A stretch of 64,000 nt of DNA from NCBI RefSeq assembly GCF_023516505.1, contig NZ_JAMGBB010000001.1, forward strand, positions 434,001-498,000, written 5' to 3'. A model generated the notes under the pieces. The model made no database searches, was not told the DNA's origin, and saw only the letters and a program-made list of their open reading frames with translations. The first letter of the stretch is position 1. Each line of letters begins with the position of its first letter. A program made the translations under genes and the position numbers. This stretch comes from Sphingomonas brevis (lineage in GTDB: Bacteria; Pseudomonadota; Alphaproteobacteria; Sphingomonadales; Sphingomonadaceae). Below, piece by piece: positions 30,951 through 63,699 of the stretch.

Positions 30951-31583
30951 CTACGACGTAACCGCTTCCATGATCGCCGTCCTTAACTCGGCAATGCCGT
31001 CGCCGGTTTCGCTGGACGTCGGCAGGATGAGGGGATGGGCGGCCGGGTGCTTTGCCGCCTCCGCCTGGATCGCCTCGACGGTTTTGGCGAGCTCGGTCGG
31101 CTTGACCTTGTCGGCCTTGGTCAGGACCAGGTGGTAGCTGACCGCGGCATTGTCGAGCATCTTCATGACGTCGCGGTCGACGTCCTTGAGGCCATGGCGC
31201 GCGTCGACCAGGACCAAAGTGCGCTTCAGCACCTGCCGTCCGCGAAGGTAGTCGTTGATCAGGAAGCGCCAGCGCTTGACCATGTCTTTCGGCGCTTCTG
31301 CAAAGCCATAGCCCGGCATGTCGACCAGCCGGAAAACCAGCGGCTTCCCGACATCGAAATAATTGAGCTCCTGAGTCCGTCCGGGCGTGTTCGACGCGCG
31401 GGCCAGCTTGTTGCGGTTGGTGACCGCATTGATCAGCGAGCTCTTGCCGACATTGGAGCGGCCGGCAAAGGCTATCTCCGGAACGGTCGGGGCCGGCAGG
31501 TGCTGAAGCTGCGGGGCCGATTTCAGAAACTCGATCGGCCCGGCGAACAGCTTGCGCGCACGCTCGGCTGACTCTTCAGTCAT
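30951..31583 (-). CDS. engB: Ribosome biogenesis GTPase YihA/YsxC
   Basis: A GTPase needed for 50S subunit assembly. The 210 residues contain G1 AGRSNVGKSSLINAV, G2 around TPGRTQELNY, G3 DMPGYGFA, G4 LTKADKVK and G5 PTSSETGDG. It ends the rpmH-rnpA-yidD-yidC-engB run. Its ATG at 31583 overlaps the TGA of a small frame that crosses the REP element from the yidC stop, so coupling to yidC is possible. Confidence 0.95.
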   Translation of the reverse strand: MTEESAERARKLFAGPIEFLKSAPQLQHLPAPTVPEIAFAGRSNVGKSSLINAVTNRNKLARASNTPGRTQELNYFDVGKPLVFRLVDMPGYGFAEAPKDMVKRWRFLINDYLRGRQVLKRTLVLVDARHGLKDVDRDVMKMLDNAAVSYHLVLTKADKVKPTELAKTVEAIQAEAAKHPAAHPLILPTSSETGDGIAELRTAIMEAVTS

Positions 31584-31590
31584 TGTCCAC

Positions 31591-31653
31591 CCCCGTTCGT
31601 GTCGAGCGCAGTCGAGACACGTCCCTCGACTTCGCTCGGGACGAACGGCGGGG
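31591..31653. repeat. REP-like palindrome (type B) between yidC and engB
   Basis: The arms CCCCGTTCGTGTCGAGCGCA and its partner ending CGGGACGAACGGCGGGG flank a short centre. On the minus strand a 29-codon frame (31666 to 31580) starts with GTG overlapping the yidC stop (GTGA) and ends with TGA overlapping the engB ATG (ATGA). Its peptide, [20 protein letters not shown], is the kind of repeated short sequence often mis-annotated as small genes. A related copy lies at 43829-43906. Confidence 0.85.
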
Positions 31654-31662
31654 AGGTGAACG

Positions 31663-33384
31663 TCACGTTTTCACCGGATGCGTGTCGGAGAGGTGCATGT
31701 CGTAGCGCTTGTAGAGCCACGCCTGCTGCGCGATCGTCAGGATATTGGAAGTGACCCAGTAGACGAGCAGGCCGGCCGCGAACGGCGCCATCACGAACAT
31801 CAGCACCCACGGCATGATCGAGAAGATTTGCTGCTGCGTCGGGTCCATCTGCTGCGGGTTGAGCTTGAACTGGAGCCACATGGTAATGCCGAGCAACACG
31901 GCCAGCGGACCGATTGCGAGGAAAGACGGCGGCGTGAAGTTGAGCAGGCCGAACAGGTTCAAAATATGTGCCGGGTCAGGCGAGCTTAAGTCCTTGATCC
32001 ATAGCGTGAACGGCTGGTGGCGCATTTCGACGCTGACCATCAGCACCTTGTAGAGCGCGTAGAACACCGGGATCTGGAGGAGGATCGGCAGGCAGCCCGC
32101 GGCCGGATTGATCTTCTCTTCCTGATACAGCTTCAGCATCTCCTGCTGCAGGCGCGGCTTGTCGTCCTTGTAGCGCTCCTGCAGCGCCTTCATCTTCGGC
32201 TGGATCTTGCGCATCCCGGCCATCGACCGGAACTGCTTGTCGGCAATCGGGAACATCAAGCCCCGGACGATGAAGGTCAGCGCGATGATTGCGAACCCGA
32301 AATTTCCGATCGTGTGGAACAGCCACAGCAGCAATTTGAAGATCGGGATCATGAAGAAGCGGAACCAGCCCCAGTCGATCGCCCGGTTGAGCGAAGGAAT
32401 GCCAGCCGCTTCGTAGCGCTGAAGATAGGTATATTCCTTTGCGCCGGCGAACAGGCGGGTCTCGCTGCTCACCGCCTGGCCTGGTGCGACCACGAAAGGC
32501 GCTCCGGCATAGTCGGCCTGGTAGGCGCCCGACGGCGTCCGCTTGAAGCTGGCCTCAATTGGTGCGCCATTGGCCGGGGCAAGGGCGGTCAGCCAATATT
32601 TGTCGGTAAAGCCTAGCCAACCGCCACGGCTATCGAGGGTGACGCCTGACTTGTCTTCGTCCAGCGTTTCCCATTTGACGTCATATTCGGCCTTGTCGCC
32701 CAGATAGCTGATTGGGCCGACATGATTGGTCCATGTCGATGGATCCTTGCTCTTCTCCGCCCTGCTGGCGAGGCCGTAGATGCGGACCGCGACGGGAGCA
32801 CTGCCACCGTTCACGACCCTCTGCTTGACCGTGAACAAATAGCCGTCGTCGACAGAGATAGTCTGTTCGAACCGCTGGCCGGTCGGGTTGGTCCAGCTCA
32901 GCGTCACCGGCTTGCCGGGCGAGAGCGTCATAGCGCTCGCGGTCCAGAGGCTGTTGGCATCCGGCGCCGCGACGCCTTCCCCAGTCCAGCCGAACTGCGT
33001 GAAATAGCTGTCCTTCGCGCCAGCCGGCGACAGCAGGCGAACGGGTGGGGAATCCTTGGCGATGGTCTCACGCTGCGCGACCAGGTCGAGGTCATCGAAC
33101 CGCGCGCCCTTCAAATTGATCGAGCCCTGCAGGCTCGGCGTTTCGATCCTCACGCGCGGCGTCTCTGTCAGCACAATCGCTCGCTCGCGGATCGCCTGCG
33201 GCGTCTGGACTGCCGGAGCGGCTGGAGTAGCCGATGGCTGCGGAACCGGCTTCATCTTGCCATCGTCGACCTGCTGGGCCTGCGGCGCGGGGGTCGGGAG
33301 GAATTTCTCGGACAATAGCCCCCAGCCGAGCAGCACGATGGCGCTCAGCACGATCGCGAGGAGCATGTTGCGATTGTCGTTCAC
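31663..33384 (-). CDS. yidC: Membrane protein insertase YidC
   Basis: It inserts and folds inner-membrane proteins alone or with SecYEG. The 573 residues have an N-terminal membrane helix, a large periplasmic beta domain (about residues 60-340), and the conserved C-terminal core of five membrane helices (GWFRFFMIPIFKLLLWLFHT, ...QIPVFYALYKVL, ...MPWVLMFVMAPFAAGLLVYW). The conserved Arg for substrate grip is in the first core helix region. The start is GTG at 33384 after AAGGAC. It follows yidD by 18 bp. Confidence 0.96.
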   Translation of the reverse strand: MNDNRNMLLAIVLSAIVLLGWGLLSEKFLPTPAPQAQQVDDGKMKPVPQPSATPAAPAVQTPQAIRERAIVLTETPRVRIETPSLQGSINLKGARFDDLDLVAQRETIAKDSPPVRLLSPAGAKDSYFTQFGWTGEGVAAPDANSLWTASAMTLSPGKPVTLSWTNPTGQRFEQTISVDDGYLFTVKQRVVNGGSAPVAVRIYGLASRAEKSKDPSTWTNHVGPISYLGDKAEYDVKWETLDEDKSGVTLDSRGGWLGFTDKYWLTALAPANGAPIEASFKRTPSGAYQADYAGAPFVVAPGQAVSSETRLFAGAKEYTYLQRYEAAGIPSLNRAIDWGWFRFFMIPIFKLLLWLFHTIGNFGFAIIALTFIVRGLMFPIADKQFRSMAGMRKIQPKMKALQERYKDDKPRLQQEMLKLYQEEKINPAAGCLPILLQIPVFYALYKVLMVSVEMRHQPFTLWIKDLSSPDPAHILNLFGLLNFTPPSFLAIGPLAVLLGITMWLQFKLNPQQMDPTQQQIFSIMPWVLMFVMAPFAAGLLVYWVTSNILTIAQQAWLYKRYDMHLSDTHPVKT

Positions 33385-33402
33385 GTAATATTGTCCTTGA
33401 AT

Positions 33403-33615
33403 TCAGGGGACCGGGTCGAAGCCCTGCCCACCCCAGGGATGGCAACGGAAGATGCGCTTTAGGGCGAGCCAGCTTCCTTTGAGCGCGCCATAGCGTTGCA
33501 AGGCGGTGATTGCATAGGCCGAACAACTTGGCTGGAAACGGCAGCTGGGAGGGAGCACGCGGCTGGGCCCCTTTTGCCACGCCCGGGTGAGCAGGATCAG
33601 GCCTTTGGTTATCAT
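33403..33615 (-). CDS. yidD: Membrane protein insertion efficiency factor YidD
   Basis: A small accessory protein of the YidC/Sec system. The 70 residues hold the family core [19 protein letters not shown] and the later [14 protein letters not shown]; the three Cys residues are conserved in the family. The ATG at 33615 is used. In-frame codons further upstream lie within the REP element and would give a REP-derived N-terminus, so they are rejected. The ATG overlaps the TGA of a small frame coming from the rnpA stop. Confidence 0.93.
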
Positions 33616-33617
33616 CT

Positions 33618-33693
33618 CGTCATTGCGAGCAAAGCGAAGCAATCCAGCGGCGCATGACTGGATTGCTTCGTCGCAACGCTCCTCGCAAAGACG
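33618..33693. repeat. REP-like palindrome (type A) between rnpA and yidD
   Basis: Long inverted arms: CGTCATTGCGAGCAAAGCGA then AGCAATCCAG, answered by CTGGATTGCTTCGTCGCAAC and CTCGCAAAGACG. It fills the whole gap: it ends 1 bp from the rnpA stop and 2 bp from the yidD ATG. On the minus strand a 29-codon frame (33698 to 33612) starts at ATG overlapping the rnpA stop (ATGA) and ends at TGA overlapping the yidD ATG (ATGA). Related copies lie at 57313-57379 and 58867-58942. Confidence 0.88.
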
Positions 33694-33694
33694 A

Positions 33695-34159
33695 TCATTG
33701 GGAAAGTTTCTTCAAAGCGCGCTTCAGCTCAGCCGTAAGGCTGGCATAATCGCGCTCAATCCCGCCTTGCCGCCCGATCAGCACATGGTCGGCGCCGGCA
33801 ATTCCAAGGCCTGGCAGGGATTCGCGGGCAAGCGCGCGCAAGCGGCGCTTCATCCGGTTGCGGACGACCGCATTGCCGATCTTCTTGGTGACGGTGATGC
33901 CGATGCGCATCGTTGGATCGCCGTCGCCCCGCGGGCGGACGAGCAGGACGAAGCCGGGCATGGGAGCGCGCTTGCCGCTGTTGGCGGCGAGGAAATCCGA
34001 GCGCTTCCGAAGGGTGACTAGGCGCTGAGCTTCTTGCGGCCGCGTGCGCGGCGCGCGTTCAGCACCTTGCGTCCGCCGACCGTCGCCATGCGGCTGCGGA
34101 ACCCGTGCCGCCGCTTGCGGACCAGATTGCTCGGCTGGAAAGTGCGCTTCATCGCTCAT
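33695..34159 (-). CDS. rnpA: Ribonuclease P protein component, apparently overlapping all of rpmH
   Basis: The protein subunit of RNase P, which matures the 5' end of tRNA. The conserved part starts at [12 protein letters not shown] and contains the RNR motif in [18 protein letters not shown]. Directly before it the codons are CTA GTC ACC CTT: no ATG, GTG, TTG, CTG or ATN codon occurs in this frame back to the ATG at 34159. That ATG is 7 nt upstream of the rpmH ATG, so the 154-residue form reads through all of rpmH in another frame, with about 45 extra N-terminal residues. The usual length is 110-125. This layout is known from Thermus; start by an odd codon such as ACG cannot be excluded. Confidence 0.85.
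34018..34152 (-). CDS. rpmH: 50S ribosomal protein L34
   Basis: A very basic 44-residue protein of the large subunit, with the standard sequence start [20 protein letters not shown] and end [16 protein letters not shown]. The ATG at 34152 lies 8 nt after GAAGG. This ribosome site is too close to the rnpA ATG at 34159 to suit it well, so both starts seem to share it. The gene leads the rnpA-yidD-yidC-engB run, and lies wholly inside the long rnpA frame. Confidence 0.95.
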
Positions 34160-34182
34160 GCCTTCAAATATCGAATGAAAAG

Positions 34183-34198
34183 GGCCGCCGAAGCGGCC
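34183..34198 (-). terminator. UUCG-loop hairpin with T tail in the rpmH leader
   Basis: On the minus strand GGCCGC-TTCG-GCGGCC is followed at once by CTTTTC. It has the form of an intrinsic terminator with a stable UUCG loop. It lies after the end of the small membrane protein gene, but also downstream of the likely rpmH promoter, 30 nt before the rpmH ATG. It could end upstream transcription or work as an attenuator of the ribosomal protein operon. Confidence 0.6.
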
Positions 34199-34211
34199 GT
34201 TGTTGAGGGCG

Positions 34212-34240
34212 CCGATAGTCGCGAGGGCGTGAGAAGTCAA
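34212..34240 (-). promoter_or_regulatory. Probable rpmH operon promoter (TTGACT-17-TATCGG)
   Basis: On the minus strand TTGACT (34240-34235), a 17-nt spacer, and TATCGG (34217-34212). The -35 box overlaps the stop codon of the preceding small membrane protein gene. A start near 34205 would place the UUCG hairpin at the very beginning of the transcript. Confidence 0.5.
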
Positions 34241-34584
34241 CGCCGATTGGGGGCTTCGTCATCGCCCTTGGGCAGGGAATAGCCCATTTCCTTGCGCTCC
34301 TCGCGGATCGCCGCTCGCCGCTTGGCACTCTTTCGCTGCAATCCCCAGTCAGCCCACCGGCCGATCTTGGGCTGCTTGCGCTTGAAGTCGACGTAACGGC
34401 GCTTGGCCCACATGCTGGTCTTGAGGACGAGTGCCAATCCCGCCGCGAATACGAAGATTCCGCCGGGGCCGGGCAGGGCGCCGACCGGAATTGCGGCGAT
34501 CATCAGCAGGATACCGAGGGCGAAAATGCTCCATTCGACCACCGGGTGGTCGATAAAGCTCCGCCATTGGTCGCGACTGATCAT
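34237..34584 (-). CDS. Small membrane protein of the PGPGW type
   Basis: The 115 residues have two hydrophobic segments joined by the loop GALPGPGGIFVF (VEWSIFALGILLMIAAIPVG and GGIFVFAAGLALVL), similar to the putative membrane family with a PGPGW motif; here the Trp is replaced by Gly. The C-terminal third is very basic and probably cytoplasmic. The function is unknown. The ATG at 34584 has only a weak ribosome site. The stop overlaps the rpmH -35 box. Confidence 0.7.
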   Translation of the reverse strand: MISRDQWRSFIDHPVVEWSIFALGILLMIAAIPVGALPGPGGIFVFAAGLALVLKTSMWAKRRYVDFKRKQPKIGRWADWGLQRKSAKRRAAIREERKEMGYSLPKGDDEAPNRR

Positions 34585-34991
34585 ACGTTCGATGTGGGCA
34601 GAAATTGAGACGAGACAAGGGCGCTTGCCTATCATTTCGGATGCGGTTGAGGGTCCGAATTCGCCACCGACATGGCCGTGATGGAGACGAAAAAGCGATC
34701 TGGGAGTGAGCGCGTGCAGCCGGATAGTTGGTGCTATCCGGCAATCAAGCGAGTGTTCCAGGGTGCTTTTGCGTCCCACCCAATGGGCATGGCCCTGCCG
34801 ACGCATTGCTTCGTCGAAGCGCTTGACCGGGAAGGCAACGGCCCCGCTCTTCGCGCTTCTCCTCGCCCTGCATCCGGCAGGAGCCAGGTCACGGCTCTTG
34901 CCGGTGGTGAATCCGGACCCTAATCTGCTTTGGCCGAGCTAGGAGTAAGTTTGCGTCATCCTTGTGTGCGTAGCGCGGAAGGCGGCCGCTG
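34585..34991. other. 407-bp gap upstream of comM with no convincing gene
   Basis: Short open frames exist on the plus strand (about 34672-34942), but none resembles a protein family, has a ribosome site, or shows a sensible composition. The only structure is the palindrome at 34719-34742. The gap separates the divergent small membrane protein gene from comM and should contain the promoters of both, though none could be fixed by eye. Confidence 0.5.
34719..34742. repeat. 9-bp palindrome (GCCGGATAG-N6-CTATCCGGC)
   Basis: Perfect 9-bp arms around TTGGTG. It may be an operator or a small RNA hairpin. No T run follows on either strand, so a simple terminator is less likely. It occurs once in the window. 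Confidence 0.5.
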
Positions 34992-36500
34992 ATGGTCGCG
35001 ACCGTGGCCACCGTCGCCTACCTTGGGCTCGAAGCAAGAGCTGTCGAAGTCCAGGTCCAGCTTTCGGCGGGACTTCCCGCCTTCGTCATTGTCGGCCTGC
35101 CGGACAATGCGGTGCGAGAGAGCCGGGAGCGGGTTCGTGCCGCATTGAGCGCGATCGGCCTTGCGCTTCCGCCCAAGCGGATCACCGTCAACCTGTCGCC
35201 GGCCGACCTGCCGAAGGAAGGGTCGCACTTCGACCTGCCGATCGCCCTCGGCCTGCTGGCGGCGATCGGAGCGACGGATGCCGAAAGCCTATCGCACTAT
35301 GTCGCAGTCGGGGAGCTTGGCCTTGACGGACGCATCGCGGCCTCGCCCGGCGTGCTGCTGGCCGCGCTGCATGCAAGCGGGCAGGGGATGGGACTGATTT
35401 GCCCGGCAATCCAAGGCGCCGAGGCCGCCTGGGCCGGCAGTGTCGAGGTGCTCGCCGCGCCGGACCTGCTGGCCTTGCTATCCCATCTCAAGGGGACGCA
35501 GCTCCTCCGCCCGCCGGAACCGGGCGAGGCCGAGCCGGCGGTCGGAGGTCCCGACCTGAAGCAGGTCAAGGGACAGGAGGTCGCGAAACGGGCCTTGGAG
35601 ATCGCCGCGGCCGGCGGACACAATCTGTTGATGAGCGGTCCGCCAGGTGCGGGAAAGTCACTGCTTGCCGCTTGCCTGCCGGGGATATTGCCCCCGCTTG
35701 AACCGTCCGAAGCGCTGGAAGTGTCGATGGTCGCCAGTGTCGCCGGTGAGCTGGAGGGCGGCCGCCTCCGCCGGCGCCGCCCGTTCCGTTCTCCGCACCA
35801 CAGTGCCTCGATGCCGGCGCTGGTCGGCGGCGGGCTCAAGGTCCGCCCCGGCGAAATCAGCCTGGCTCATTTGGGAGTGTTGTTCCTCGACGAGCTCCCC
35901 GAATTCCAGCGGACCGTGCTCGATTCGCTGAGGCAGCCGCTGGAGACCGGGACCGTCAGCGTGGCGCGGGCCAACATGCACGTCACCTTTCCGGCGCGCG
36001 TGCAGATGGTGGCGGCGATGAATCCCTGTCGCTGCGGGCATCTCGGTGACCCGGCCCTCGCCTGCGCCCGCGCCCCGCGCTGCGCGGCCGACTATCAGGC
36101 CAAGGTTTCAGGACCTCTGCTTGACCGGATCGACCTCCACGTCGAGGTGCAGGGAGTTAGTGCCGCTGACCTGACCCTGCCGCCGCCCGCTGAGGGCAGC
36201 GATGCGGTGGCCAGGCGCGTCGCCAACGCCAGGTCCGTGCAATCGCGCCGGTTCAACGGCAATGGAGTGAGGACCAACGCCGAAGCCGACGGCGAGCTGC
36301 TCGATTCGATCGCAACGCCCGATGAGCCCGGTCGCAAGCTGCTGGCCGACGCGGCGGCAGCCATGCGGCTGAGCGCGCGCGGCTACCATCGCGTGCTTCG
36401 CGTCGCCCGCACCATCGCCGACCTGGCCGGGTTGGAGACAGTCGGACGCATCCATGTCGCGGAGGCCCTGAGCTATCGGCGGCAGGCGCCGCGCAACTAA
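34992..36500 (+). CDS. comM: YifB/ComM family Mg-chelatase-like AAA+ ATPase
   Basis: A hexameric helicase that in competent bacteria drives branch migration during integration of transformed DNA. The 502 residues have an N-terminal Lon-like part (GLPAFVIVGLPDNAVRESRERV), the AAA+ core with Walker A SGPPGAGKSLLAACLPGILP and Walker B GVLFLDELPEF, a zinc-like MNPCRCGHLGD...C...C segment, and the C-terminal Mg-chelatase domain (RIDLHVEV, ARGYHRVLRVARTIADL). Start ATG 34992. With dprA it suggests uptake or recombination of foreign DNA, though comM is widely kept. Confidence 0.94.
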   Translation: MVATVATVAYLGLEARAVEVQVQLSAGLPAFVIVGLPDNAVRESRERVRAALSAIGLALPPKRITVNLSPADLPKEGSHFDLPIALGLLAAIGATDAESLSHYVAVGELGLDGRIAASPGVLLAALHASGQGMGLICPAIQGAEAAWAGSVEVLAAPDLLALLSHLKGTQLLRPPEPGEAEPAVGGPDLKQVKGQEVAKRALEIAAAGGHNLLMSGPPGAGKSLLAACLPGILPPLEPSEALEVSMVASVAGELEGGRLRRRRPFRSPHHSASMPALVGGGLKVRPGEISLAHLGVLFLDELPEFQRTVLDSLRQPLETGTVSVARANMHVTFPARVQMVAAMNPCRCGHLGDPALACARAPRCAADYQAKVSGPLLDRIDLHVEVQGVSAADLTLPPPAEGSDAVARRVANARSVQSRRFNGNGVRTNAEADGELLDSIATPDEPGRKLLADAAAAMRLSARGYHRVLRVARTIADLAGLETVGRIHVAEALSYRRQAPRN

Positions 36501-36529
36501 TTGCCATCGGCAAAAGGCTCGGCTAGCAG
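36501..36529 (+). promoter_or_regulatory. Probable tRNA-Leu promoter (TTGCCA-17-TAGCAG)
   Basis: TTGCCA directly follows the comM stop codon; after 17 nt comes TAGCAG (36524-36529), ending 11 nt before the mature tRNA. The TAG-type -10 box is shared with the tRNA-Asp promoter. Confidence 0.5.
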
Positions 36530-36540
36530 CGTCGCCGCGT

Positions 36541-36625
36541 GCCCCCGTGGCGGAATTGGTAGACGCGCTCGACTCAAAATCGAGTTCCGCAAGGAGTGTC
36601 CGTTCGAGTCGGACCGGGGGCACCA
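36541..36625 (+). tRNA. tRNA-Leu (anticodon CAA)
   Basis: An 85-nt class II tRNA reading UUG. The acceptor stem GCCCCCG pairs with CGGGGGC (36615-36621), followed by A and an encoded CCA. The anticodon stem CTCGA/TCGAG holds the loop CTCAAAA, giving anticodon CAA. A long variable arm is present, and the T-loop is TTCGAGT. It is flanked by comM and a membrane transporter gene. Just after it (36639-36655) is a 7-bp stem, CCAGTCT-GGG-AGACTGG, that may help 3' processing. Confidence 0.97.
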
Positions 36626-36738
36626 GCAACAGGCGCAGCCAGTCTGGGAGACTGGCGAGCATGTGGCTCCGGCCTAGTCCAAAAATCCCAGCATCCGCGC
36701 CATCTGGCGGCCAACTTAATGTTGATTAAGATGGGGCG

Positions 36739-37896
36739 ATGGACGTGCGCCCAGACACACCCGCCGATTCGCCCTCGACCGATATGGAGGCGTTGCAGGT
36801 AAAGCGCGTCCGGCTGCTGGCTTCACTGACGCTGATGGCCGGTGTCGGCCTTATCCTCGCCCTGCCATTCGCCCTTCGCGCAGGCGCCGAATTCTTCCTG
36901 CCGGTGACCGCGGCGCTGGTCGTCGCAATTGCCTTGGTGCCAATGCTGGAATGGTTCGAGCGGCGCGGCGTCCCGTCGAAGCTGGCATCGCTGCTGTGCG
37001 TTCTGGTGTTCCTGGCGATCGCCATCTTCGCGATGGCGGCAATCATCTATCCGGCGATCGACTGGGTCGCGCTGATCCCGCAGCGGATCAACCGGGTGAC
37101 CGATGCTCTGGCGCCGTTGCTCGACCTTTATTCGAACCTCGAGAAATTCATCGACAAGACGGCAGCTCGAATTTCGTTAGAGGCCAGCGAGGCCCGCACG
37201 GTGCGGGTCGAGACGCCCAATTCGCTGCTGGGCATCATCACCGCGTCGGCGCCGCATGCCGCGGTCCAGCTGTTCTTCGCGCTGCTGGTGATCTATTTCT
37301 TCCTCGCCGGCTGGACCGGCATGCGCAAGCGCACGATCGTCAGCCGCGGCAGCTTCGAGGGTGCTTTGACGACCGCCCGGGTCATCCAGCAGACGGTTGA
37401 CGCGACCTCGACCTACATCGGCACGATCACCGTCATCAACGTCTGCCTCGGCGCGCTGACCGCGGCCATCCTGTGGGCACTGGGCATGGATTCGCCCGTC
37501 ATGTGGGGCGGCATTGTCGCGGTGCTCAATTATATCCCTTACCTGGGTCCCATCGCGGCCGCGGCGTTGCTTGCGCTTGGCGGCCTGATGACCTTCGTCG
37601 ATCCCTGGGCAGCGATGCTCCCGCCGCTGATTTTCATTTCGCTTCATATGATCGAAGCCAATGTGTTCACGCCGCTGGTGATCGGGCATCGGCTGACAAT
37701 CAATCCGCTGCTGATCCTTGTTTCGCTGTCATTCTGGGCCTGGGTATGGGGCACGACGGGGGCGCTGCTGGCCGTCCCGCTGCTGATTATTTTCAAGACC
37801 GTGTTCGCCGCCGCGGGCACTCCGGACATCGCCGGTTTCCTGTTCGAGGACGGGACCCTGACCCATGTCGGCGAAGAGGAAGAAAAAGAAAGCTGA
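36739..37896 (+). CDS. AI-2E (PerM) family transporter
   Basis: The 385 residues have about eight membrane helices in the usual arrangement: two near the N-terminus, a long soluble loop (about residues 115-170), then VIYFFLAGWTGMRKR and the conserved late part GGIVAVLNYIPYLGP, FISLHMIEANVFTPLVIG, INPLLILVSLSFWAWVWG. Members export autoinducer-2 or act as sodium/proton antiporters; the substrate is not known here. The C-terminus is strongly acidic (EEEEKES). ATG 36739. Confidence 0.9.
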   Translation: MDVRPDTPADSPSTDMEALQVKRVRLLASLTLMAGVGLILALPFALRAGAEFFLPVTAALVVAIALVPMLEWFERRGVPSKLASLLCVLVFLAIAIFAMAAIIYPAIDWVALIPQRINRVTDALAPLLDLYSNLEKFIDKTAARISLEASEARTVRVETPNSLLGIITASAPHAAVQLFFALLVIYFFLAGWTGMRKRTIVSRGSFEGALTTARVIQQTVDATSTYIGTITVINVCLGALTAAILWALGMDSPVMWGGIVAVLNYIPYLGPIAAAALLALGGLMTFVDPWAAMLPPLIFISLHMIEANVFTPLVIGHRLTINPLLILVSLSFWAWVWGTTGALLAVPLLIIFKTVFAAAGTPDIAGFLFEDGTLTHVGEEEEKES

Positions 37897-37901
37897 GCTT
37901 G

Positions 37902-37930
37902 TTGACAGGGTGGGGCGGCTCTCCTAGTTG
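37902..37930 (+). promoter_or_regulatory. Probable tRNA-Asp promoter (TTGACA-17-TAGTTG)
   Basis: A perfect TTGACA at 37902-37907, 17-nt spacer, then TAGTTG at 37925-37930. Transcription would start about 12 nt before the mature tRNA end at 37950. Confidence 0.6.
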
Positions 37931-37949
37931 CGCCGCCTCAGCCCAAAGC

Positions 37950-38026
<77 letters not shown>

Positions 38027-38035
38027 TTCATTCTT

Positions 38036-39163: not shown

Positions 39164-39248
39164 CGTCGGGAAGCGGTGAATTGGTGACCCAATACACTAA
39201 AATCAATGAACCTTCGACGAACGGTTCGTTTCAGGGACTGAAAGGCCG

Positions 39249-40051: not shown

Positions 40052-40054
40052 GGG

Positions 40055-40193: not shown

Positions 40194-40199
40194 CCTACC

Positions 40200-40228
40200 T
40201 ACTTAGGCGTTGGCGTCGCTTCGCTCAA
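40200..40228 (-). promoter_or_regulatory. Probable 6S RNA promoter (TTGAGC-17-TAAGTA)
   Basis: On the minus strand TTGAGC (40228-40223), 17 nt, TAAGTA (40205-40200), overlapping the final codons and stop of zapA. A start near 40193 fits a free-standing RNA gene. Confidence 0.45.
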
Positions 40229-43828: not shown

Positions 43829-43906
43829 CCGTTCGTCCCGAGCGCAGTCGAGGGACGGGGTGAGGCGGTCGTGCCAGCGCACCTCGACTTCGCTCGGTAC
43901 GAACGG
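43829..43906. repeat. REP-like palindrome (type B) between gap and pgk
   Basis: The arms CCGTTCGTCCCGAGCGCAGT and its partner ending CGCTCGGTACGAACGG match the element at 31591-31653. The zero frame continues open from the gap stop codon through the element to the pgk ATG, without a stop. No start codon overlaps the gap stop, so coupling in the manner of the other copies is not complete here. Confidence 0.85.
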
Positions 43907-56631: not shown

Positions 56632-57296
56632 TGGCCGAACGTAACTTCGCCCCCGATACGCCTGAGCTTCGCGCCGAGTGGGACGGCTTCGCCTGGACCA
56701 GCGCCAATGCCAAGGCCGCGGCCGATATCGTCACCCGCTATCCGGCGGGGCGGCAGGCATCGGCCTCTATACCGTTCCTCGACCTCGCCCAGCGACAGGT
56801 CGGCGCGATGACCGGAACGCAAGGCTGGCTGCCGATCCCGGTGATCGAGTTCGTCGCGCGCGAACTCGACATGCCGCCGGTTCGCGTGATGGAGGTCGCC
56901 AGCTTCTACACCATGTTCAACCTGGCCCCGGTCGGTAAATTCCATGTCCAGGTGTGCGGCACGACGCCCTGCATGCTGCGCGGTTCGGACGACGTGCTCT
57001 CGGCCTGCTACAAGCGCGGGCTGAAGAAGGGTCACACGACGGACGACGGGATGTTCACGCTGACCGAGGTCGAGTGCCTTGGCGCCTGCGCCAACGCGCC
57101 CATGGTCCAGATCAACGACGACAATTACGAGGACCTGACCGAGGACAGCATGAAGGCGATCCTCGACGCACTGGCTTCGGGCAAGCAACCCAAGATCGGT
57201 CCCCAGGTCGACCGCAAGACGAGCTGCCCGGAAGGCGGCCCGACCACGCTCAAGAAGATGGCCGAGCGCAACTACGACTATCGGGGCCAGTGGTGA
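56631..57296 (+). CDS. nuoE: NADH-quinone oxidoreductase subunit E
   Basis: The 24-kDa-type subunit with the 2Fe-2S cluster N1a. The 221 residues include the helical N-terminus, FYTMFNLAPVGKFHVQVCGT with PCMLRG, and ECLGACANAPMVQINDDNYE, holding the four Cys ligands. ATG 56631 overlaps the nuoD stop by one base. Its stop overlaps an ATG (TGATG) that opens the small frame through the following REP element. Confidence 0.96.
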   Translation: MAERNFAPDTPELRAEWDGFAWTSANAKAAADIVTRYPAGRQASASIPFLDLAQRQVGAMTGTQGWLPIPVIEFVARELDMPPVRVMEVASFYTMFNLAPVGKFHVQVCGTTPCMLRGSDDVLSACYKRGLKKGHTTDDGMFTLTEVECLGACANAPMVQINDDNYEDLTEDSMKAILDALASGKQPKIGPQVDRKTSCPEGGPTTLKKMAERNYDYRGQW

Positions 57297-57312
57297 TGGG
57301 CACCCTATTATT

Positions 57313-57379
57313 CGTCATTGCGAGCGAAGCGAAGCAATCCAGGCTGGATTGCCGCGTCGCTGCGCTCCTCGCAATGACG
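57313..57379. repeat. REP-like palindrome (type A) between nuoE and the 50-residue ORF
   Basis: The arms CGTCATTGCGAGCGAAGCGA with AGCAATCCAG, answered by CTGGATTGCC and GCGCTCCTCGCAATGACG. A 35-codon frame (57296-57400) starts in the nuoE stop (TGATG) and ends with TGA overlapping the ATG of the next small gene (ATGA). Its peptide contains FVIASEAKQSRLDCRVAALL, the typical translation of such repeats. It is not called as a gene. Confidence 0.88.
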
Positions 57380-57396
57380 GGCCAAGGAGCGGCGCG

Positions 57397-57549
57397 ATGA
57401 AGGATATCATCAAAGCCGTCGTGGCGATCGTCATCATCCTCATCGCCATCAAGATCATCGGCGTCATTCTTGGCTTGCTGGTCGGCGTCGCGCTTGCCGG
57501 ATTGGTCGTCTACGGCGGGATGAAGCTGCTGGAAGGCCCCAAGGCATGA
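57397..57549 (+). CDS. 50-residue membrane protein inside the nuo operon
   Basis: A short gene with a very good ribosome site (AAGGAG, 9 nt upstream) encoding [20 protein letters not shown] and a second hydrophobic stretch ([19 protein letters not shown]), so two membrane helices with a Gly-rich turn. Its stop overlaps the nuoF ATG (ATGA), and its start lies on the stop of the REP-crossing frame. The position suggests a small accessory protein of complex I or of its assembly, but no family is recognised. Confidence 0.7.
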
Positions 57550-58853
57550 GCGGCATCACCTCCCTGACCGACAAGGACCGGATTTTCACTAACCTCTATG
57601 GCTTCCAGGGTGCGGACCTGAAGTCGAGCCAGGCACGCGGCGATTGGGACAAGACCGCAGACCTGATGAAGGTCGGGCAGGACGCGATCATCGACGTGGT
57701 CAAGGCGTCGGGCCTGCGCGGCCGTGGTGGCGCCGGCTTCCCGACCGGCATGAAGTGGAGCTTCATGCCCAAGGAGCCGACCGCCGGGCGCCCCAACTTC
57801 CTGGTGATCAATGCCGACGAGTCCGAGCCCGGCAGCTGCAAGGACCGCGAAATCCTGCGCCACGACCCGCACAAGCTGGTCGAAGGCGCCCTGATTGCCG
57901 GTTTCGCCATGCGTTGCCGAGCGGCCTATATCTATGTGCGGGGCGAATTCATCGTCGAGACCGAGGCGCTCCGGAAGGCAGTCGCCGAAGCCTATGACGC
58001 CGGCCTGCTCGGCAAGAATGCCGCCGGATCGGGCTTCGACTTCGACGTCTTCGTCCACCGTGGCGCCGGCGCCTACATCTGCGGCGAAGAAACGGCGATG
58101 CTGGAGAGCCTTGAAGGCAAGAAGGGCCTGCCGCGCCTGAAGCCGCCGTTCCCGGCCGGCGCCGGCCTCTACGGCTGCCCGACCACGGTCAACAATGTCG
58201 AGAGCATCGCGGTCGTGCCCACGATCCTCCGGCGCGGCGCTGCCTGGTTCGCCAGCTTCGGGCGCGAGAAGAATGAAGGCACCAAGCTGTTCCAGATTTC
58301 GGGCCATGTGAACTGCCCGTGCGTGGTCGAGGAAGCCATGTCGATCCCGTTTCGCGAGCTGATCGACAAGCATGCCGGCGGCATCCGCGGCGGGTGGGAT
58401 AACCTCCTTGCCGTGATCCCGGGCGGATCGTCGGTGCCGCTGGTGCCGGCCGAGCAGATCATGGATGCGCCGATGGATTTCGACGGGCTCAAGGAACTCG
58501 GCTCCGGTCTCGGCACCGCGGCGGTCATCGTCATGGACAAGTCGACCGACATCGTCCGCGCGATCAGCCGCATCAGCTATTTCTACAAGCATGAAAGCTG
58601 CGGCCAGTGCACACCCTGCCGCGAGGGCACCGGCTGGATGTGGCGGACGATGGAGCGCCTGCGCGAAGGCGATGCCCAGGTCGGCGACATCGATAAGCTG
58701 TACGACGTCACCAAGCAGGTCGAAGGTCACACCATCTGCGCGCTTGGTGACGCGGCCGCCTGGCCGATCCAGGGCCTGATCCGCCATTATCGCCCCGAGC
58801 TCGAGCGCCGCATTGCCGAGCGTCATGGCGCCGAGCGGGAGGCGGCGGAGTGA
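57546..58853 (+). CDS. nuoF: NADH-quinone oxidoreductase subunit F
   Basis: The 51-kDa-type subunit that binds NADH and FMN and holds cluster N3. The 435 residues contain the NADH site [18 protein letters not shown], the FMN site [15 protein letters not shown], and [19 protein letters not shown], and the 4Fe-4S motif [17 protein letters not shown] with a late Cys in [17 protein letters not shown] overlaps the small membrane gene. A REP element follows. Confidence 0.97.
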
Positions 58854-58866
58854 TCCACTTCTTTAT

Positions 58867-58942
58867 CGTCATCGCGAGGAGCGGAGCGACGTGGCGATCC
58901 AGTGGCGCCAGTCTGGATTGCTTCGCTGCGCTCGCAATGACG
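58867..58942. repeat. REP-like palindrome (type A) between nuoF and nuoG
   Basis: The arms CGTCATCGCGAGGAGCGGAG, then GCGATCCAG, answered by CTGGATTGCTTCGCTGCGCT and CGCAATGACG. A 39-codon frame (58850-58966) starts with GTG overlapping the nuoF stop (GTGA) and ends with TAA 8 nt inside nuoG, so it also spans the nuoG ATG. It fits reinitiation or coupled translation. Confidence 0.87.
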
Positions 58943-58958
58943 AACAATGGAATTGCGA

Positions 58959-60965
58959 ATGCCTAAAGTCACCGTCGACGGCGTAGAGATTGAAGTTCCG
59001 CAGGGCGCGACCGTGCTGCAGGCGTGCGAGCTTGCCGGCAAGGAGATCCCGCGCTTCTGCTACCACGAGCGGCTGAGCATCGCCGGTAATTGCCGCATGT
59101 GCCTGGTCGAGGTTGCCCCTGGGCCGCCCAAGCCGCAGGCGAGCTGCGCGCTGCCCGCCGCGGATGGCCAAACGATCAAGACCGACACGCCAATGGTCAA
59201 GAAGGCGCGGGAAGGGGTGATGGAGTTCCTGCTCATCAACCACCCGCTCGACTGCCCGATCTGCGACCAGGGCGGCGAATGCGACCTGCAGGACCAGGCG
59301 ATGGCCTATGGCCGCGGCCATTCGCGCTACGAAGAGAATAAGCGGGCGGTCGACGACAAATATTTCGGGCCGATCGTCAAGACATCGATGACTCGCTGCA
59401 TCCAGTGCACCCGCTGCGCCCGCTTCGCCGAAGAAGTGGCCGGCACGCCGGAAATCGGCATGGTATTCCGGGGCGAGGACGCGCAGATCACAACCTACCT
59501 CGAAAAGGCGTTCACGTCGGAGCTGGCGGGCAATCTGGTCGACCTCTGCCCGGTCGGCGCCTTGCTGTCGAAGCCATACAGCTTTGAGGCGCGGCCGTGG
59601 GAGCTGCGCAAGGTACCCGGCATCGACGTGATGGACGCGCTCGGCACCAACATCCGCATGGACGTCCGTCAGCGCCAGGTGATGCGCATCCTGCCGCGCA
59701 TCAACGATGCGGTGAATGAGGAATGGGCGCACGACAAGACGCGCCACCATGTCGACGCACTGGTTCGCAACCGGCTCGACCGTCCGTGGGTGCGCGACGC
59801 CAAGGGCAAGCTCAAGGAAGCCAGCTGGGGCGACGCGCTCGATACCTTCGCCAAGCAGTTCAAAAAGGCCGGGAAAAAGGTCGCGGCGATTGCCGGCGAC
59901 CTGCTCGACGCCGAAACCATGTATGCCGCCAAGGCGCTGCTGGCGGGCGCGGGCTCAACCCTGCTGGAAGGGCGACAGACCGGGCTCGACTATGACGTGA
60001 CCAGCCTCGCCGCGGTGCGGTTCAACACCCCGATCGCCGAGATCGAGAATGCCGATTTGGTGCTGCTGGTCGGATCGAACGTCCGGTGGGAAGCGCCGTT
60101 GGTCAACACGCGCATTCGCAAGGCGATACGTCGCGGGGCCAAGGTGTTTGCGATCGGGCCGGAAGTCGACCTGACCTACAAGGTCGAATGGCTGGGCGAT
60201 GACCTGTCGCTGATCGGCAAGCTGCCCAAGGCGGCGGCCGACGCGATCAAGGGCGCAAGCAGGCCGGTGATGATCGTCGGTCCGGGTGCGCTTGGTGCAG
60301 GCGCGCTGGGCGCCGCGCTGGCGGCATCCAAACCGTTCATCAAGGACGGCTGGAACGGCTTCAATGTGCTGCACATCGCCGCGGCGCGGATGGCCAGCCT
60401 GCTGCTCGGCTATGCGCAGAAGGGCGGCATCGCCGACATCGAAAAGGCGAAGCCGGAGCTGGTGATTCTGCTCGGCGCGGACGAGGTCGCAGCCGATGCG
60501 TTCAAGGGGGCGTTCAAGGTCTACATCGGCCACCACGGCGACAAGGGCGCCGCTAATGCCGACCTCGTCCTGCCGGGCGCAACCTATGCTGAAAAGCATG
60601 GCACCTACGTCAACATTGAGGGCCGCGTGCAGCGGAGCGAGCGCGCCGCCTTCGCGCCGGGCGATGCACGCGAGGATTGGACGATCCTGCGCGCGCTCAG
60701 CGACCTCATCGGCAAGCCGTTGCCGTTCGACCGGTTCGACCAGCTTCGCGCGGCGATGATCGCCCAAGTGCCCGAACTGGGCCAGGAAGGCGTGATCGAC
60801 TTCAAGTGGGCGCCGCCGAAGCTCGCCGCCAAGGCAAGCGGGCCGGTCGGCTATCCGATCAAGGATTTCTACCTGACCAACGCGATCTGCCGCGCCAGCC
60901 CGACCATGCGCCGTTGCTCGGAAGAGCTGGTCCATGGCCATGAATATGCGGAGGCGGCGGAATGA
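58959..60965 (+). CDS. nuoG: NADH-quinone oxidoreductase subunit G
   Basis: The 75-kDa-type subunit with several iron-sulfur clusters. The 668 residues hold the 2Fe-2S ferredoxin domain ([20 protein letters not shown]), the cluster N5 region ([20 protein letters not shown]), the 4Fe-4S part [14 protein letters not shown], and the large molybdopterin-oxidoreductase-like domain, which in complex I binds no cofactor. ATG 58959 is used; an ATG at 58947 is weaker. It overlaps nuoH (ATGA). Confidence 0.96.
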
Positions 60966-62032
60966 CCGCGTGGTTCCAGGGCACTTGGCTAGGGCCTGAT
61001 GGCGGCTGGCTGATCGCCAACCTGATCCTGATTTTGCTTATCGCCCTGCCGCTGATGCTGGCGGTGGCGATGATCATCTATGCCGAGCGCAAGATCTGGG
61101 CGGCGATCGCGCTTCGCCGCGGGCCGAACGTGGTCGGACCGTGGGGCCTGCTGCAAAGCTTTGCCGATGGCCTCAAGGTCTTCCTGAAAGAGACGATCAT
61201 CCCGTCGAGCGCCAACAAGGGCCTGTTCCTGATCGCGCCGATCATCACCTTCACCGTCGCGCTGATCGTCTGGGCGGTGGTGCCGTTCGACGTTGGCGTG
61301 GTGCTGACCGACATCAATGTCGGCCTGCTCTACATCCTCGCCGCGAGCAGCCTCGGCGTTTACGGCGTGATCATCGCCGGCTGGGCGTCCAACAGCAAAT
61401 ATCCCTTCTTCTCGGCGCTTCGCGCTGCCGCGCAGATGGTGAGCTATGAAGTGTCGATCGGCTTCGTGCTGATCTGCGTCGTACTTTACGCCGGCACCTT
61501 CAACCTGACCGACATTGTCATGGCGCAGAAGGGCAATGTCCTCGGGATCCTCAATGGCTTCGGGTTCAACCCGCTGCTGTTCCCGATGGCGGTGGTGTTC
61601 CTGATCAGCGCAATGGCAGAAACCTTCCGCACACCGTTCGACCTGGTCGAGGCGGAGAGCGAGCTCGTCGCCGGTCACCAGACCGAATATTCGTCGATGG
61701 CCTTCGCGCTGTTCTGGCTCGGCGAATATGCCAACGTCATCCTGATGTGCGCACTCAACGCCATCCTGTTCTGGGGCGGGTTCCTGCCGCCGATCGACTG
61801 GGCGCCGCTCTATCATTTCCCCTTCACCGACATTTCGACCGGATGGCTGTGGCTCATCCTGAAGATGTGCTTCTTCTTCTTCGTGTTCGGCTGGGTGAAG
61901 GCGACGGTGCCGAGGTACCGCTATGACCAGCTGATGCGGCTCGGCTGGAAGATCTTCCTGCCCCTGTCGCTTCTGTTCGTCGCGCTGATCAGCGGCTGGC
62001 TGATGTGGACCAGGTACGGAGTAGCGGCATGA
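60962..62032 (+). CDS. nuoH: NADH-quinone oxidoreductase subunit H
   Basis: A membrane subunit with eight helices that forms part of the quinone chamber. The 356 residues contain [60 protein letters not shown], and [20 protein letters not shown], all family signatures. It overlaps nuoG and nuoI by 4 bp each. Confidence 0.97.
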
Positions 62033-62511
62033 TCGCGCGGACCATCAAGGCTTTCACGCTATGGGAATTCGTCAGGGCGCATGCCCTGACCTTGAAGTAT
62101 TTCTTCAAGCCCAAGGCGACGATCAACTATCCCTACGAGAAGACGCCGACTTCGCCCCGCTTCCGCGGCGAGCATGCGCTGCGCCGCTACCCGAACGGCG
62201 AAGAGCGCTGCATCGCCTGCAAGCTGTGCGAGGCGATCTGCCCGGCGCAGGCGATCACCATCGAAGCCGAGCCGCGCGAGGACGGCAGCCGCCGCACCAC
62301 CCGCTACGACATCGACATGGTGAAGTGCATCTATTGCGGCCTGTGCGCCGAGGCCTGCCCGGTCGATGCGATTGTCGAAGGGCCGAACCTGGAGTTCGCC
62401 ACCGAAACTCGCGAGGAATTGCTCTACGACAAGGTCAAACTGCTCGAGAATGGCGACCGCTGGGAACAGGCGATTGCCGCCAACCTTGCCGCCGATGCGG
62501 CGTATAGATAG
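62029..62511 (+). CDS. nuoI: NADH-quinone oxidoreductase subunit I
   Basis: The 23-kDa-type subunit with two 4Fe-4S clusters (N6a, N6b). The 160 residues have two ferredoxin motifs, [17 protein letters not shown] and [19 protein letters not shown], and the N-terminal amphipathic part. ATG overlaps the nuoH stop (ATGA). A 158-bp gap with a REP element follows before nuoJ. Confidence 0.97.
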
Positions 62512-62556
62512 GGGCGGGCGCACTTGTTCAAACAGGGACCATCCGTGACCTTCCAT

Positions 62557-62654
62557 CGTCGTGCCAGCGAAGGCTGGCATCCATGTCATTGCGGTTGCGC
62601 ATCGAGCGCAGTGGCATGCGTCGACCTGGGCCCCAGCCTTCGCTGGGGTGACGG
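62557..62654. repeat. REP-like palindrome (type C) between nuoI and nuoJ
   Basis: The arms CGTCGTGCCAGCGAAGGCTG and CCCCAGCCTTCGCTGGGGTG then ACGG. In the zero frame after the nuoI stop the sequence is open to a TGA overlapping the nuoJ ATG (ATGA); GTG at 62545 and TTG at 62524 are possible starts (43 codons from the GTG). The start does not overlap the nuoI stop, so coupling is less exact than at nuoJ/nuoK. Confidence 0.87.
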
Positions 62655-62669
62655 CTTGAGGGAGCCGTC

Positions 62670-63275
62670 ATGATCGCAATCTTCGCCTTTTACCTGTTCG
62701 CTACGCTGACCATCGCTTCGGCGGTGCTGGTGATCTTCGCGCGCAACCCGGTTCACAGCGTGCTGTGGCTGATCATGGCCTTTTTCAATGCGGCCGGCCT
62801 GATGCTGATCCTGGGGGCCGAATTCATCGCCATGTTGCTGGTGATCGTCTACGTCGGGGCGGTTGCGGTGCTGTTCCTGTTCATCGTCATGATGCTCAAT
62901 ATCGACTTCGCGCAGCTGCGGTCCGGCTTCACCAAGAACCTGCCGTTCGGATTGCTGGTGGCACTGGTGCTGCTGGCCGAGATGATCGTCGCCGTGTCGG
63001 CGTGGAAGGCGGGCCCGGTAACCGGCAATATCCAGCCTGCGGCCGGGACGCAGCCCAATATCGAGGCGATCGGCGAGCTGCTTTACAGCCGCTTCCTGTT
63101 CCCGTTCGAAATCGCCGGCCTCATCCTGCTGGTGGCGATGATCGGCGCGATCGTGCTGACCCATCGCAGCCGCGGCGACGTGCGCGGCCAGAAGGTGTGG
63201 AAGCAGGTCGACAGGCGACCCGACGAAGCGATCAAGCTGGAACAGCCAGCTGTCGGAAAGGGCGTCAAGCTATGA
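62670..63275 (+). CDS. nuoJ: NADH-quinone oxidoreductase subunit J
   Basis: A membrane subunit of complex I. The 201 residues have five helices, the ARNPVHSVLWLIMAFFNAAG and LGAEFIAMLLVIVYVGAVAV signatures, and a soluble C-terminal tail. The ATG at 62670 overlaps the end of the frame through the REP. Its stop overlaps an ATG (ATGA) that opens the frame through the next REP. Confidence 0.96.
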   Translation: MIAIFAFYLFATLTIASAVLVIFARNPVHSVLWLIMAFFNAAGLMLILGAEFIAMLLVIVYVGAVAVLFLFIVMMLNIDFAQLRSGFTKNLPFGLLVALVLLAEMIVAVSAWKAGPVTGNIQPAAGTQPNIEAIGELLYSRFLFPFEIAGLILLVAMIGAIVLTHRSRGDVRGQKVWKQVDRRPDEAIKLEQPAVGKGVKL

Positions 63276-63285
63276 GCCTCACGGC

Positions 63286-63370
63286 CGTCGTGCCGGCGAA
63301 GGCTGGCATCCATGTCTTGGAAGCTGGGCAGTGCGGTCCAACATGGGCCCCAGCCTTCGCTGGGGTGACG
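63286..63370. repeat. REP-like palindrome (type C) between nuoJ and nuoK
   Basis: The arms CGTCGTGCCGGCGAAGGCTG and CCCCAGCCTTCGCTGGGGTG plus ACG. A 42-codon frame (63272-63397) starts at ATG overlapping the nuoJ stop (ATGA) and ends at TGA overlapping the nuoK ATG (ATGA). Its peptide contains VVPAKAGIHVLE and WAPAFAGVT, the well-known translation of this repeat class. It is not called as a gene. Confidence 0.88.
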
Positions 63371-63393
63371 AATAGCCACGAAGGCAATCCGGC

Positions 63394-63699
63394 ATGATCG
63401 GCCTGACCCATTATCTCGCCGTCGCGGCGATCCTGTTCACGCTTGGCGTGCTCGGCATCTTCCTCAATCGCCGCAACATCATCCTGATGCTGATGGCGAT
63501 CGAGCTCATCCTGCTGGCAGTCAATATCAACCTGGTCGCCTTCAGTGCTTTCCTCGGCGATTTGACCGGCCAGGTATTCGCCATGTTCGTGTTGACCGTA
63601 GCCGCGGCCGAGGCCGCAATCGGTTTGGCGATCCTCGTCATTTTCTTCCGTCGCCGCGGTTCGATCGCGGTCGACGATGTCAACCGGATGCGCGGCTGA
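63394..63699 (+). CDS. nuoK: NADH-quinone oxidoreductase subunit K
   Basis: An antiporter-like membrane subunit with three helices. The 101 residues contain [20 protein letters not shown] with the conserved Glu and [14 protein letters not shown], then [15 protein letters not shown] with the second conserved Glu. ATG 63394; the stop shares a base with nuoL (TGATG). Confidence 0.97.

What the first reader, a model, noticed from the sequence alone, without database searches (positions are those of the whole stretch)
31580..63397. REP-like elements in operons carry small open frames that link neighbouring genes
Eight REP-like palindromes of four families lie only between genes. In five same-strand junctions (rnpA/yidD, yidC/engB, nuoE/orf50, nuoF/nuoG, nuoJ/nuoK) a frame begins in the upstream stop (ATGA, GTGA or TGATG) and runs 28-41 codons through the repeat. 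It stops on the next ATG, or 8 nt inside the next gene in the nuoG case. A sixth (nuoI/nuoJ) is open and stops on the ATG. This suggests that repeats inserted at coupled gene junctions are kept only if they pass ribosomes through, a relay for translational coupling. An open frame of this length is not rare by chance in GC-rich DNA, but five exact joins are more than expected.
Basis: partly seen in the sequence, partly recalled or inferred. Interest (0 to 1): 0.8.

Follow-up and report, generated by a model that had tools for sequence, protein, structure and literature searches.

The report
Repeats bridged by relay reading frames
Where mobile palindromic repeats sit between tightly linked genes in sphingomonad bacteria, they mostly carry a short reading frame that starts at the old start signal and ends on the displaced one, which suggests that ribosomes must be able to pass from gene to gene through the repeat.

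Summary
All five joining frames exist as described.

Own genome: 17 REP-bearing same-strand junctions end upstream in ATGA/GTGA. In 11 the frame stops exactly on the next start; the other two phases give 1 of 34, and junctions without that signal 2 of 32.

Held-out test, written down first: in further family loci, nuoG/H and nuoJ/K inserts at ATGA/GTGA join exactly in 36 of 38. With nuoH/I and K/L added and length 40-250 nt: 43 of 45 exact, 45 of 45 within 8 nt, other phases 2 of 90. The bare 4-nt overlap stands in 93 of 151 nuoG/H and 118 of 148 nuoJ/K junctions. Insert peptides are of many unrelated types; one repeat is read in all three frames.

Best explanation: insertions survive if translation can pass, by termination-reinitiation. 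Translation was not tested. Genome-wide the share is about 60%; Shine-Dalgarno evidence is mixed; no target-site duplication was found. Mycobacterial MIRUs are a published precedent: a new variant of a known kind.

The parts
33612..33698 (-). relay frame rnpA to yidD (28 codons + stop; ATGA to ATGA)
   Evidence: 23 of 29 relatives scored have the bare 4-nt overlap here (script prefers an overlapping start if one is in frame)
33617..33693 (-). REP pair (VIAS/VIASB type) inside the relay
   Evidence: fold z-score -4.2 for 33609-33698
31580..31666 (-). relay frame yidC to engB (28 codons + stop; GTGA to ATGA)
   Evidence: 23 of 29 relatives scored have the bare overlap (22 of 30 loci by the gene model)
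31594..31647 (-). REP pair (VPSE type) inside the relay
   Evidence: fold z-score -5.0 for 31580-31664
57296..57400 (+). relay frame nuoE to orf50 (34 codons + stop; TGATG to ATGA)
57312..57379 (+). REP pair (VIAS + VIASB)
   Evidence: fold z-score -2.8
58850..58966 (+). relay frame nuoF to nuoG (38 codons + stop; GTGA, stops 8 nt inside nuoG)
   Evidence: the same +5 stop in 4 of the 6 nuoF/G gaps of 40-260 nt printed for relatives, the other two at -2 and -5 (20 gaps of 40 nt or more in all)
58867..58943 (+). REP pair (VIASB + VIAS)
   Evidence: fold z-score -3.9
62524..62673 (+). frame nuoI to nuoJ: TTG 12 nt after the nuoI stop to the TGA overlapping the nuoJ ATG
   Evidence: read by eye; in relatives without an insert the gap is 12 nt in 32 of 107, so the TTG may be the old nuoJ start
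62557..62653 (+). REP pair (PAKA + GVTN type)
63272..63397 (+). relay frame nuoJ to nuoK (41 codons + stop; ATGA to ATGA)
   Evidence: bare overlap in 118 of 148 relatives' junctions
63286..63370 (+). REP pair (PAKA + GVTN type)
   Evidence: fold z-score -3.5
43830..43905 (+). REP pair (VPSE) between gap and pgk, TAG stop upstream, no relay: contrast case

Best explanation
Short palindromic repeats of several unrelated types insert at or next to start codons inside operons, often where a start codon overlaps the upstream stop (ATGA/GTGA). The insertion leaves the old start signal at the end of the upstream gene and displaces the downstream gene by roughly 60-230 nt. Copies persist mainly when the frame from the old start runs open through the repeat and stops on, or within a few nucleotides of, the displaced start. 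A terminating ribosome starts on the relay frame as it formerly did on the gene, translates and melts the palindrome, terminates on the displaced start and reinitiates. The peptide is incidental; what is kept is passage of translation. Shown: the frames, their exact joins, their absence in the other phases, the bare overlaps in relatives, and independence from repeat type. Inferred: that the frames are translated, that reinitiation is the hand-over, and that selection against broken coupling removed other insertions.
For: Own genome: 11 of 17 ATGA/GTGA junctions exact versus 1 of 34 in the other phases (p 3e-6) and 2 of 32 in other REP junctions (p 2e-5) (yidD start set by hand, without it 10 of 16). 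Held-out nuo set B, 40-250 nt: 43 of 45 exact, 45 of 45 within 8 nt; other phases 2 of 90 exact; no stop in the relay frame in 45 of 45 versus 15 and 12 of 45; gap = 1 mod 3 in 42 of 45. As predicted (nuoG/H and J/K only, any length): 36 of 38. Set A, not held out: 35 of 39. The 84 inserts of both sets form 48 alignable clusters at the same junction (one of them the small-gene family), 43 wholly exact. VPSE repeats are read in all three frames. VPSE pairs in other genera: 8 of 13 exact versus 1 of 26 in the other phases; 7 of 12 without one nuoG/H case already counted. In 81 of 84 nuo inserts the stop lies within 8 nt of the displaced start. A gap of about 20 nt nearly abolishes coupling in three gene pairs each of E. 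coli and Haloferax (PMC10666635, abstract).
Against: No ribosome profiling or reporter data. Genome-wide the share is about 60%, not 95%: of the own 17, stops also fall at -70, -22, -19, -6 and +5, and one frame runs on into the downstream gene. The genus VIAS set is weak: 3 of 5, two with a called start inside the REP, against 6 of 32 in its other junctions. In the VPSE set the other junctions also join in that phase in 8 of 24, so that contrast is not significant (p 0.10); some of them have TGATG/TAATG or a start just behind the stop. Shine-Dalgarno evidence is mixed: without small genes, matches of 4 or more bases stand before the relay start and the displaced start in 36 and 26 of 36 (nuoG/H), 16 and 17 of 21 (J/K), 2 and 5 of 9 (K/L), 2 and 2 of 3 (H/I), so many displaced starts could initiate alone. 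A target-site duplication beyond TGA was not supported. 14 of 84 nuo inserts are one small-gene family. Related species share some insertions. Set B was drawn from the best-scoring NuoH matches, not at random.
Confidence: 0.78

Rival explanations
1. The repeats insert site-specifically at DTGA start codons and carry a built-in frame (as described for MIRUs), so the join follows from the insertion chemistry and needs no later selection.
For: At nuoI/J, where no stop overlaps, frames that begin within 25 nt of the nuoI stop also join (31 of 46 against 10 in shuffles, maximum 20). Review passage on MIRUs.
Against: Many unrelated types of different lengths join; one repeat is used in all three frames; the same families in non-coupled junctions of the own genome show all three gap residues (12, 8, 12 for 0, 1, 2). 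No duplication beyond TGA was detected.
Confidence: 0.12
2. The relay is kept to keep ribosomes on the RNA, against Rho termination, RNase attack or hairpins that hide the next start, and not for reinitiation as such.
For: The repeats fold strongly (z -2.8 to -5.0 for the five window relays). REPs within 15 nt of a stop stall ribosomes in E. coli (passage in PMC5082802). Many displaced starts have a Shine-Dalgarno match of their own.
Against: Frames that read well past the next start would serve equally, but in 81 of 84 nuo inserts the stop lies within 8 nt of it.
Confidence: 0.22
3. The frames are functional small proteins.
For: 14 of 84 nuo inserts are one conserved 45-46 aa family between nuoG and nuoH, mostly in Sphingopyxis; a few longer inserts also look like genes.
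Against: The other peptides are largely unrelated between species and differ in frame for one repeat.
Confidence: 0.04
4. Chance plus gene-calling artefact.
For: Open frames are common in these GC-rich repeats; shuffles give about 18-29% exact joins (3.1 of 17, 13.2 of 45).
Against: Homology-anchored starts give the same result, with 2 of 90 exact in the other phases.
Confidence: 0.01

Closest known systems
MIRU (mycobacterial interspersed repetitive units; Supply et al. 1997, not read, known here through the review PMC12548453, section 11 read)
   Same: Mobile repeats that insert at start codons so that a frame within the repeat is coupled to the displaced gene with a -4 spacing, thought to spare its expression.
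   Different: There one kind of repeat in mycobacteria; here several unrelated palindromic types in sphingomonads, one of them read in three frames, with phase statistics and bare overlaps in relatives.
Termination-reinitiation coupling at ATGA/TGATG overlaps (PMC6728339, start of abstract in listing; PMC10666635, abstract)
   Same: The same stop-start overlap at both ends of the relay.
   Different: Two successive hand-overs across an inserted repeat in place of one.
Rickettsia palindromic elements (passages in PMC10969869)
   Same: Palindromic repeats tolerated because they are open in frame.
   Different: RPEs can be translated inside proteins; here the repeat forms a separate short cistron, rarely a possible fusion.
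Bicistronic design or short nonsense upstream frames (PMC13255528, start of abstract in listing; PMC12548453 section 11)
   Same: A short frame without a useful product delivers ribosomes to the next start.
   Different: Engineered there, natural here.
REP/BIME elements with RAYT transposases (PMC2817692, start of abstract in listing)
   Same: Palindromes in inverted pairs, in many copies, mostly between genes.
   Different: No Y1_Tnp (RAYT domain) match in this genome.

Membership tests
MIRU-type start-codon repeats | frame in the repeat overlaps the next start by 4 nt (-4) | tested here: met
   stop at +1 (ATGA) in 73 of 84 nuo inserts of 40-250 nt, others at -2 to -6 or further
MIRU-type start-codon repeats | insertion at a start codon (DTGA; the motif is recalled, not from a call) | tested here: inconclusive
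   relay frames start at ATGA/GTGA or near the site of the ancestral nuoJ start, but no duplication of the site beyond TGA was detected, so the insertion point itself is inferred
MIRU-type start-codon repeats | sequence relation to the MIRU family | not tested
   no mycobacterial sequence was fetched; membership is not claimed
REP/BIME | short palindromes, paired in inverted orientation, many copies, between genes | tested here: met
   113 pattern hits, some overlapping, in 76 clusters; 73 of 80 clusters outside called genes
REP/BIME | RAYT (Y1_Tnp) transposase in the genome | tested here: not met
   0 matches to PF01797; 5 of 14 control genomes positive
Termination-reinitiation coupling | stop and start overlap or lie within a few nt | tested here: met
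Termination-reinitiation coupling | downstream translation depends on upstream translation | not testable with these tools
   needs reporters or profiling

The most novel reading that the evidence does not exclude
Across the Sphingomonadaceae, operon junctions act as a filter: any mobile repeat, whatever its family, survives at a coupled start only as a relay cistron. The distribution of relays in genomes would then be a natural, genome-wide assay of which gene pairs truly depend on translational coupling, and non-coding REPs would be a large unannotated class of translated cistrons without a product function.
Probability: 0.5. Interest if true: 0.78.

Novelty: new variant of a known kind. Interest (0 to 1): 0.64.

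Why it matters
It gives evolutionary evidence, over many insertions of unrelated repeats, that ATGA overlaps in operons are kept for passage of ribosomes and not merely for compactness. It names junctions (nuoG/H, nuoJ/K, yidC/engB, rnpA/yidD) where this can be tested, and it explains a class of spurious-looking small frames inside REPs. The general idea has a precedent in MIRUs.

Tried and rejected
A target-site duplication longer than TGA: a few loci looked convincing (9 nt in L055 and L061), but identity beyond TGA did not exceed mismatched pairs (60 inserts, mean extension 0.90 versus 0.63, p 0.11); rejected. RAYT as the mover: no Y1_Tnp match in the genome. Genus-wide VIAS sampling as replication: only 5 ATGA/GTGA junctions among 37, little information. 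Other alphaproteobacterial families: the 25 loci examined outside the family have nuoG/H gaps of -50 to +5 and no insert; at nuoH/I four gaps of 46-130 nt with ATGA/GTGA stop at -5, +7, -12 and -101, too few to judge, and the prediction for the class stays untested.

Rows dropped or set by hand: own junctions with gap over 200 (53 to 49) and the yidD start set by hand; nuo inserts over 250 nt; junctions identical in sequence to an earlier one, so set B holds no exact copy of set A although some genomes are in both (83 of the 89 loci contribute a junction, 28 a counted insert); 15 of 84 for the 'minus small genes' count; L414 as a repeat of L334. Misses in set A (4 of 39): L093, L103, L043, L058; L093 and L103 may be wrong start choices, but they are counted as misses. 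Misses in set B (2 of 45): L313 at -6, L368 at -5. That inserts of relatives are repeats in their own genomes was not tested; types were assigned by hand-made peptide motifs.

Literature: ten searches showed no report of this in sphingomonads among the titles and abstract starts listed; several listings were cut (20 of 55, 12 of 4223, 10 of 12, 10 of 71) and most subscription papers are not held.
Full report
Setting. The window is C1:434001-498000 of a 2.59 Mb genome. Its NuoF is 96% identical to that of a metagenome Sphingomonas (L031) and 90-92% to those of two named Sphingomonas species (L032, L033). The repeats are REP-like palindromes in inverted pairs. I used five patterns, with working names after their translations: VIAS, VIASB, VPSE, PAKA, GVTN. 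Genome-wide they hit 34, 23, 18, 17 and 21 times at up to 3 mismatches, 76 clusters in all.

Check of the observation. All five joins are as stated. The sixth, nuoI/nuoJ, has an in-frame TTG 12 nt behind the nuoI stop (by eye). In relatives without an insert here, nuoJ starts 12 nt behind that stop in 32 of 107, the commonest single spacing. So the frame may start where nuoJ once started; this is a reading, not a test.

Own genome. I fetched 48 stretches around the repeats and called genes with a home-made codon and Shine-Dalgarno model that knows nothing of joins. Of 80 clusters, 53 lie between same-strand genes, 11 divergent, 9 convergent, 7 inside a called gene. Of 49 same-strand junctions with gaps up to 200, 17 end upstream in ATGA or GTGA. 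In 11 of these the frame from that start stops at -4 to +1 of the next start, in 13 within 10 nt. The other two phases give 1 of 34 exact; the 32 other junctions give 2 of 32 in the same phase. One of the 17 rests on a yidD start set by hand; without it the count is 10 of 16. Swapping in spacers from the 32 gives a mean of 1.07 exact joins, never 11 in 20000 trials; mononucleotide shuffles give 3.1, never 11 in 5000. A broader definition (ATG or GTG up to 25 nt after the stop) gives 11 of 17 against 4.65 in dinucleotide shuffles (maximum 8 of 300), and 0 of 32 in the other junctions against 2.6. In the same stretches, long gaps without a recognised REP give 0 of 5 at ATGA/GTGA and 7 of 78 elsewhere.

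Relatives, first set. In 80 nuo loci of other species, nuoG/H and nuoJ/K are mostly bare ATGA/GTGA overlaps, and inserts carry joining frames whose sequences differ from species to species. I then wrote down a prediction: at nuoG/H and nuoJ/K at least 80% exact in new genomes of family and class, against about 20% by chance.

Relatives, held-out set. Of 298 family genomes searched with NuoH I used 29 returned loci plus the next 60 of the listing, fetched as stretches. That is 89 loci, with ends and starts set by homology. Junctions identical to one in the first set were dropped. As predicted: nuoG/H 23 of 24 and nuoJ/K 13 of 14 exact, 36 of 38. I added nuoH/I (3 of 3) and K/L (6 of 7); all 48 stop within 8 nt. 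Limited to 40-250 nt: 43 of 45 exact, 45 of 45 within 8; other phases 0 and 2 of 45. The relay frame has no stop in 45 of 45 against 15 and 12 of 45. The gap is 1 mod 3 in 42 of 45. Shuffles give 13.2 exact, maximum 21 of 200 trials. First set under the same rule: 35 of 39. nuoI/J, which in relatives mostly has a short gap and not an overlap, gives 31 of 46 general relays against 10 in shuffles, maximum 20.

Independence. The 84 inserts of both sets fall into 48 alignable clusters, of which 43 are wholly exact. By hand-made peptide motifs they include nine repeat-like types, one small-gene family (14 inserts) and 15 unassigned. VPSE repeats are used in all three frames. Other junctions agree in part (which prefers an overlapping start if one is in frame). 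yidC/engB is a bare overlap in 23 of 29; of four gaps of 40 nt or more, the two with GTGA join exactly and the two with GTAA or GTAG do not. rnpA/yidD is bare in 23 of 29; of four such gaps, the two with ATGA/GTGA stop at +1 and -5, one with TGATG stops at +13, one has GTAA. nuoF/G gaps of 40-260 nt (six printed of 20 of 40 nt or more) stop at +5 in four, as in the window, and at -2 and -5.

Third set. The VPSE pair pattern occurs in 9 of 59 family genomes, own included. With 20 stretches, 46 loci outside the own genome gave 8 of 13 ATGA/GTGA junctions exact, other phases 1 of 26. The remaining junctions also join in that phase in 8 of 24, partly through TGATG or TAATG or a start just behind the stop, so this contrast is not significant there (p 0.10). 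A sample of VIAS hits in the genus gave 3 of 5, two with doubtful starts, against 6 of 32.

Mechanism. Shine-Dalgarno matches of four or more bases (small genes left out) stand before the relay start and before the displaced start in 36 and 26 of 36 at nuoG/H, 16 and 17 of 21 at J/K, 2 and 5 of 9 at K/L, 2 and 2 of 3 at H/I. In the window the scores are 3.5 and 0.8 at nuoF/G, 2.2 and 1.0 at yidC/engB, 2.2 and 2.2 at nuoJ/K, 0 and 0 at rnpA/yidD, 0 and 4.5 at nuoE/orf50. So only nuoG/H and nuoF/G point clearly to the old start as the entry site. Recounting this without the small genes made me lower my confidence slightly. Gaps of about 20 nt nearly abolished coupling in E. coli and Haloferax reporters (abstract of PMC10666635), so an insert of 60-230 nt without a relay should break it. 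Survivorship of in-register, stop-free insertions explains the data best. A site-specific element with one built-in frame does not explain many types, lengths and frames.

What is known. The review PMC12548453 (section 11) describes MIRUs that insert at start codons so that a frame within the MIRU is coupled to the displaced gene. The principle is therefore published for mycobacteria. What is added here is its occurrence in sphingomonads with many unrelated palindromic repeats, the phase statistics, and a held-out test. Outside the family, 25 loci had no nuoG/H insert, and four nuoH/I gaps are too few to judge, so generality is open.

Limits. No translation data; gene starts partly by model; related species share insertions; held-out loci were the best NuoH matches, not random; the own-genome sample covers only fetched stretches; patterns miss diverged repeats.

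Noticed in passing
L115 (own genome, C1:204716-211716), also L429 and L437: At some ATGA/GTGA junctions the frame through the repeat does not stop but runs on in frame into the downstream gene (517 codons in L115; L429 and L437): a possible repeat-encoded N-terminal extension or a start-call error.
   Followed up: no
L076, L081, L094, L096 and others, between nuoG and nuoH: A conserved 45-46 aa frame (HAIAS...WRGFNPR...GPHNGWRNQDG) joined by ATGA at both ends in most of 14 loci, mostly Sphingopyxis: an apparent small gene of unknown function.
   Followed up: partly
L074, L076, L095, L105, between nuoE and nuoF: Another conserved small frame of about 32-35 aa (MAVWIALG...), membrane-like.
   Followed up: no
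57397-57549: orf50 between nuoE and nuoF, a 50 aa hydrophobic protein; no Pfam match; placed behind nuoE in only 3 of the relatives' loci.
   Followed up: partly
own genome, 32 REP junctions without ATGA/GTGA upstream: REP pairs sit behind TAA, TAG or uncoupled TGA stops, often within 30 nt, and carry no relay (0 of 32 by the broader definition).
   Followed up: partly
VIAS repeat, right end (CAATGACG); L208, L229: The repeat itself ends in an ATGA; the gene model places some downstream starts inside it, so the repeat may supply a ready-made stop-start overlap.
   Followed up: no
genome G000: REP-like elements are abundant but no RAYT domain (PF01797) is found; what moves them is unknown.
   Followed up: partly
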